From the IMG/VR virus record IMGVR_UViG_3300022865_000425, positions 1 to 62,506 of that record: a DNA stretch of 62,506 nucleotides; one strand, written 5' to 3'. Every line of letters begins with the position of its first letter. The first letter of the stretch is position 1. The notes below the pieces were generated by a model that saw only the letters and a program-made list of their open reading frames with translations, was not told the origin of the DNA and made no database searches. The stretch comes from a virus. Made by a program: the position numbers and the translations under genes. Positions 1,807-1,878 of this stretch are shown piece by piece.

Positions 1807-1878
1807 TTAGCGATGTGCAATGTACATTGAAATTTCGAAGCCATAACGCATTTCTGTGTACTCGGGCTTGCTCCACAT
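1807..1878 (-). CDS. pqqA: PQQ precursor peptide PqqA
   Basis: A 23-residue peptide beginning [13 protein letters not shown] and ending SMYIAHR. It matches PqqA of Proteobacteria along its length: Met-Trp-x-Lys-Pro N-terminus, Arg11, Gly13-Phe14, and above all Glu15 and Tyr19 in the E-x-x-x-Y arrangement. These are the two residues that PqqE crosslinks to make the pyrroloquinoline quinone skeleton, at exactly the positions found in the 23-residue Klebsiella peptide. A Shine-Dalgarno AAAGGAA is seven bases before the ATG, and a terminator follows within 30 bases, so it is a monocistronic gene. No pqqB, C, D or E is in the window, so the host must supply them. It would raise the substrate for host PQQ synthesis (inference). 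Confidence 0.87.
   Translation of the reverse strand: [23 protein letters not shown]

What the first reader, a model, noticed from the sequence alone, without database searches (positions are those of the whole stretch)
1807..1878. Phage-borne pqqA: a 23-residue PQQ precursor peptide
Seen: ATG-TAA frame of 23 codons on minus with AAAGGAA ribosome site and its own terminator; the peptide has Trp2, Lys4-Pro5, Arg11, Gly13, Glu15 and Tyr19, the exact spacing of PqqA where Glu and Tyr are joined by PqqE. Known: PqqA is consumed to make PQQ, cofactor of methanol, ethanol and glucose dehydrogenases. Inference: the phage raises PQQ in the infected host and so feeds periplasmic electron flow, or the peptide was taken from a host locus. 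No other pqq gene is in the window. It is below normal gene-calling length, so may be overlooked in related phages.
Basis: partly seen in the sequence, partly recalled or inferred. Interest (0 to 1): 0.92.

Follow-up and report, generated by a model that had tools for sequence, protein, structure and literature searches.

The report
Phage-carried PQQ precursor peptide gene (pqqA)
A very large bacteriophage carries a tiny, genuine copy of the bacterial gene for the peptide from which the cofactor PQQ is made; the same gene sits, mostly unannotated, in many unrelated phages of methanol-using bacteria, so these viruses probably keep the host's alcohol-burning enzymes supplied with cofactor.

Summary
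Window 1807-1878(-) encodes [23 protein letters not shown], which passes the curated cut-offs of Pfam PqqA and of the NCBIfam PqqA equivalog. The window is 99.98% identical to part of a 289,070-bp phage contig with no pqqB-E and no PQQ methanol/ethanol dehydrogenase. The peptide is 19/23 identical to PqqA of small-genome Betaproteobacteria. The gene stands alone: ribosome site, UUCG hairpin, then a consensus promoter for the next genes. The larger result is breadth. All nine Methylophilales/Methylophilaceae phage records that the search found carry pqqA, none labelled as such. At least 120 IMG/VR contigs carry it, probably thousands; none of those read has pqqB-E in the DNA held. It shows purifying selection and recurrent own terminators. 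Best explanation: the phage tops up the one consumable of PQQ synthesis, copying a host habit (Methylophilaceae keep 3-12 pqqA copies but one pqqBCDE set, PMC4109929). Phage PqqA was described before (Lake Baikal, PMC7678222), so this is a new member of a known kind, but far commoner than reported. Expression and effect on PQQ are untested.

The parts
1807..1878 (-). pqqA, 23-residue PQQ precursor peptide [23 protein letters not shown]
1884..1890 (-). AAAGGAA, Shine-Dalgarno-like site of pqqA
   Evidence: sequence
1752..1784 (-). UUCG-capped GC-rich hairpin, probable intrinsic terminator of pqqA
   Evidence: (dG -14.7, z -4.3); not listed by the strict scan
1726..1754 (-). 12/12 sigma-70 consensus promoter-like site for the genes after pqqA, so pqqA is probably a single-gene unit
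1472..1720 (-). 82-aa protein of unknown function, next gene after pqqA
   Evidence: no family
916..1461 (-). peroxiredoxin (Redoxin/AhpC-TSA), neighbour
727..912 (-). short Cys-rich protein, neighbour
   Evidence: Cys_rich_CWC, below curated cut-off
244..582 (-). P-II nitrogen regulatory protein (GlnK-like), neighbour
2..244 (-). start of an ammonium transporter gene cut by the window edge; complete (407 aa) in the 289-kb contig
1999..2931 (+). divergent 310-aa protein of unknown function, bounding the pqqA upstream region

Best explanation
This is a phage-carried, host-derived pqqA. It is probably transcribed as a short single-gene RNA and translated to a 23-residue peptide. Host PqqD and PqqE then join Glu15 to Tyr19, and a host protease, PqqB and PqqC finish PQQ. 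The cheapest way for a phage to keep PQQ flowing to periplasmic PQQ-dependent alcohol dehydrogenases is therefore to bring pqqA alone. This would sustain methanol or other alcohol oxidation, and so respiration and carbon supply, during infection. Shown here: family identity, phage location, separation from other pqq genes, selection on the frame, recurrence in unrelated phages of methylotrophs. Inferred: expression, processing by host enzymes, a rise in PQQ, benefit to the phage.
For: Curated PqqA cut-offs passed. Phage contig of 289 kb with structural genes. No pqqB-E in any phage locus read. Nine Methylophilales/Methylophilaceae phage records carry it, while TerL relatives of MEP301 and MEP402 on other hosts do not appear among the hits. 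pN/pS 0.21, or 0.37 over codons left free by the search pattern. Own terminator after 59 of 124 copies against 41 of 1069 control ORFs. Some phage peptides are identical to bacterial copies. Likely hosts have several pqqA copies and published Methylophilaceae have 3-12 with one pqqBCDE set (PMC4109929). A related large phage carries methanol dehydrogenase, formate dehydrogenase alpha and pqqA close together.
Against: No expression or biochemical data. No convincing promoter upstream of this pqqA. The window phage itself has no PQQ dehydrogenase. Its peptide has two residues (Ser17, His22) seen in no other of the 126 phage copies compared, so it could be drifting. Host of this phage is inferred from the peptide alone; AmtB gave no host signal.
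Confidence: 0.8

Rival explanations
1. Passenger gene: a host pqqA picked up by chance and carried without benefit to the phage.
For: Host-like peptide; lone pqqA copies are common in host chromosomes and easy to pick up.
Against: Purifying selection over the set; presence in many gene-content groups and in small phage genomes of 35-44 kb, where passengers are quickly lost.
Confidence: 0.1
2. Decoy: the phage peptide occupies PqqD/PqqE and lowers PQQ, for example to slow the host or alter its envelope.
For: The phage brings substrate only, no enzyme.
Against: The Glu and Tyr that are joined are kept, and 38 of 126 phage copies have peptides identical to sampled bacterial ones, so they should be turned over like the host's. 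A related phage adds a PQQ enzyme, which points to use, not blockade.
Confidence: 0.04
3. The peptide or its short RNA has another role (signal, regulatory RNA or a different modified peptide) and only resembles PqqA.
For: A short unit ending in a hairpin; B12-binding radical SAM proteins lie within about 10 kb in the large contig.
Against: Equivalog-level match; selection acts on the peptide frame while synonymous sites vary freely.
Confidence: 0.06

Closest known systems
PqqA of the PQQ biosynthesis pathway (PF08042, TIGR02107)
   Same: Length, Trp/Pro/Arg/Gly pattern, Glu-x3-Tyr spacing, curated cut-offs passed.
   Different: On a phage, without pqqB-E; Ser17 and His22 instead of the usual Thr and Asn.
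Lake Baikal virus VP_266 PqqA with methanol dehydrogenase (PMC7678222)
   Same: Phage-borne pqqA in a large T4-type phage assigned to Methylophilaceae, same proposed purpose.
   Different: VP_266 also encodes methanol dehydrogenase; the window phage does not and instead has peroxiredoxin, P-II and ammonium transporter genes beside pqqA.
Extra stand-alone pqqA genes of Methylophilaceae (PMC4109929, PMC9851590)
   Same: A lone pqqA that adds substrate for one shared set of enzymes.
   Different: Chromosomal and host-regulated, not delivered by a virus.
Unlabelled pqqA in cultured phages MEP301, MEP401, MEP402, Venkman, Melnitz and P19250A
   Same: Free-standing pqqA over the family cut-off.
   Different: Different phage types and Methylophilaceae-type peptides; about 52-59% identical to the window peptide.

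Membership tests
PqqA (TIGR02107 / PF08042) | Score over the curated cut-off | tested here: met
   36.9 against 20 bits and 30.0 against 21.1 bits
PqqA (TIGR02107 / PF08042) | Glu and Tyr separated by three residues, the pair joined by PqqE | tested here: met
   Glu15 and Tyr19
PqqA (TIGR02107 / PF08042) | Encoded with or near pqqBCDE | tested here: not met
   None in the window or the 289-kb contig. Not a strict criterion: lone pqqA genes are normal in Methylophilaceae.
PqqA (TIGR02107 / PF08042) | Is cross-linked by PqqD/PqqE and becomes PQQ | not testable with these tools
   needs biochemistry
Phage auxiliary metabolic gene | Host-like metabolic gene on a true phage genome | tested here: met
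Phage auxiliary metabolic gene | Kept by selection in phages | tested here: met
   pN/pS well below 1 over the set, for the set rather than this copy alone
Phage auxiliary metabolic gene | Expressed and changes host metabolism in infection | not testable with these tools
   needs infection transcriptomics or metabolite data

The most novel reading that the evidence does not exclude
Free-standing pqqA is a near-constant, repeatedly acquired gene of phages that infect obligate methylotrophs, because PQQ precursor supply limits energy during infection; it has been missed because gene callers drop 23-codon genes.
Probability: 0.6. Interest if true: 0.78.

Novelty: new member of a known kind. Interest (0 to 1): 0.64.

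Why it matters
Methylotrophs turn over much of the methanol in oceans and lakes, and the enzyme that starts this needs PQQ (own knowledge). If most of their phages bring the PQQ precursor, infection would change that flux, and PQQ supply becomes a testable limiting step in infection. It also shows that a recurrent metabolic phage gene can stay invisible for being 23 codons long: the papers on Melnitz, MEP301 and MEP401/402 do not mention pqqA.

Tried and rejected
Host assignment by AmtB failed (best 42-43% identity). Promoter search upstream of pqqA was inconclusive: weak 9/12 matches are commoner than in controls, stronger ones are not. Peroxiredoxin and the divergent gene at 1999-2931 found only near-identical contigs of the same phage. 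The IMG sample numbers occur in no held paper, so the habitat is unknown. The two Acinetobacter 'phage' hits were left out of the count: the one record read has pqqABCDE among chromosomal-looking genes and reads as a bacterial contig; the second, of the same organism name, was not read. Phage records MEP431-434, named in the taxonomy, did not turn up, so the claim covers only the nine Methylophilales/Methylophilaceae records that the search found. A Manatee Spring phage whose TerL is 74.6% identical to that of MEP402 gave no pqqA by pattern, so the gene is not fixed in that lineage, or that phage has another kind of host. Bacterial contamination of IMG/VR was considered: absence of pqqB-E alone does not exclude it, because hosts have lone pqqA copies too.

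Full report
WHAT IS THERE. The minus-strand frame 1807-1878 encodes [23 protein letters not shown]. It passes the cut-offs of Pfam PqqA (30.0 against 21.1 bits) and of the NCBIfam equivalog TIGR02107 (36.9 against 20), and is the only such hit in the record. A degenerate PqqA codon pattern matches once in the window and never in 100 shuffles.

WHERE IT IS. The window matches positions 62459-1 of IMG/VR contig 3300025502_001322 (289,070 bp) at 99.98%. That contig has portal, tail tube and virion proteins, ribonucleotide reductase and a phage DNA polymerase, so it is a jumbo phage, possibly incomplete. tblastn finds no PqqB-E in it, and the TIGR03075 methanol/ethanol dehydrogenase model finds nothing. 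After pqqA, on the same strand, come an 82-aa unknown, a peroxiredoxin, a short Cys-rich protein, P-II, and an ammonium transporter that is complete in the large contig. A UUCG hairpin and a 12/12 sigma-70 promoter-like site lie between pqqA and the next gene, so pqqA looks like a single-gene unit. I found no convincing promoter for pqqA itself.

RELATIVES IN NAMED PHAGE RECORDS. tblastn over 50,697 phage records hit 13: nine Methylophilales/Methylophilaceae phage records (MEP301, MEP401, MEP402, Venkman, four Melnitz variants, P19250A), one environmental phage (MW202481), two Acinetobacter 'phage' records, and one Escherichia phage at E = 8, which I take as chance. Of the two Acinetobacter records I read one: pqqABCDE stand together among chromosomal-looking genes, so it reads as a bacterial contig; the other I did not read. 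In five of the nine, one search lists no annotated feature under the match. In Melnitz-1 and in MW202481 a wrong-strand 'hypothetical' gene covers it; the other three Melnitz records list 'hypothetical protein' there and were not opened. Six representative records score over the family cut-off. MEP301 and MEP402 have TerL relatives on Pelagibacter and Vibrio that do not appear among the pqqA hits, so the gene seems to follow the host rather than the phage lineage. Of the 10-kb Venkman stretch used as a query, only 85 bp around pqqA align to MW202481 (90.6%), which suggests transfer of the gene by itself.

RELATIVES IN METAGENOMES. The 119 copies read from them have ATG and a stop, and nearly all a purine-rich ribosome site; none has pqqB-E in the flanks held. 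A second pattern gave 27 more, again without pqqB-E. Two narrower scans, set against codon frequencies in the first sample, put the total in the thousands, with a wide error. Host chromosomes also hold lone pqqA copies, so absence of pqqB-E does not by itself prove a contig viral; but 71 of the loci, phage isolates included, form one gene-sharing group. By shared genes the loci fall into 19 groups, an upper estimate because many are short. Across 117 distinct DNA versions pN/pS is 0.21, and 0.37 over codons that the pattern left free; of the other five frames four are broken by stops in 46-112 versions, and the fifth in 13. An intrinsic terminator follows 59 of 124 copies against 41 of 1069 control ORFs; the copies are related, so the p-value there is inflated.

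HOSTS. The nearest bacterial peptide, [23 protein letters not shown], occurs in Betaproteobacteria MAGs such as TMED22, UBA3031 and a North Sea bin. Several of these loci carry pqqB-E, genomes of the group often have 2-3 pqqA copies, and the one genome tested (G004) has two PQQ dehydrogenases over the cut-off and a third close below it. Published Methylophilaceae genomes hold 3-12 pqqA but one pqqBCDE set (PMC4109929), and in one methylotroph three of five pqqA lie apart, one of them among the most expressed (PMC9851590). The host of the window phage is inferred from the peptide only; AmtB gave no signal.

HOW IT PROBABLY WORKS. PqqA is consumed one for one, and the enzymes are reused (established biochemistry; named in PMC9851590). 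A phage that stops host gene expression would cut off new PqqA early. Bringing pqqA alone would restore the flow, as extra copies do in the host. A related large phage (72-kb contig, many genes in the same order as in the window phage) carries a PQQ methanol/ethanol dehydrogenase, formate dehydrogenase alpha and pqqA within about 8 kb, which points to methanol oxidation as the target. Expression, processing and benefit are inferred, not shown.

WHAT IS KNOWN. Phage PqqA was described in a Lake Baikal virus with methanol dehydrogenase (PMC7678222) and listed among viral genes in reservoir sediments (PMC13188868). The papers on Melnitz, MEP301 and MEP401/402 do not mention it. The kind is therefore known; its breadth, its free-standing form with its own terminator, and its place in a jumbo phage beside nitrogen-uptake genes are what this adds.

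Noticed in passing
L194 5989-7863, 7943-10783 and about 13890 (G022, IMGVR_UViG_3300025120_009955): A 72-kb phage contig related to the window phage carries a PQQ methanol/ethanol dehydrogenase with a DYD motif (typical of lanthanide XoxF, own knowledge), formate dehydrogenase alpha and pqqA close together.
   Followed up: partly
window 2-582; L182 1880-3441: A P-II regulator and a complete ammonium transporter stand side by side in the jumbo phage; both match PHROG families of unknown function.
   Followed up: partly
L008 (CAKLQF020000010.1): This record filed as 'Acinetobacter phage MD-2021a' carries pqqABCDE, polyphosphate kinase and fur and reads as a bacterial contig. A second record of the same name (CAKLQH020000055.1) was not read.
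   Followed up: partly
L004 4961-5056; L002 2067-2195: Wrong-strand 'hypothetical' genes are annotated over pqqA in Melnitz-1 and in MW202481.
   Followed up: yes
L200-L226: Phage contigs with a GMEITAY type of PqqA, and a few with an alphaproteobacterial type, one of them (L207) on a 266-kb contig, all without pqqB-E in the DNA held.
   Followed up: partly
L005 4988-5072 against MW202481 2107-2190: Only about 85 bp around pqqA align between the queried Venkman stretch and a Manatee Spring phage (90.6%).
   Followed up: no
L182 6382-7890 and 9272-10945: Two long proteins about 6-10 kb from pqqA in the jumbo phage; the first gives weak matches to B12-binding radical SAM families, the second looks similar by eye. 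Role unknown.
   Followed up: no
L195 (G018, 356-kb contig): A second jumbo phage contig carries pqqA and shares several proteins with the window phage.
   Followed up: partly
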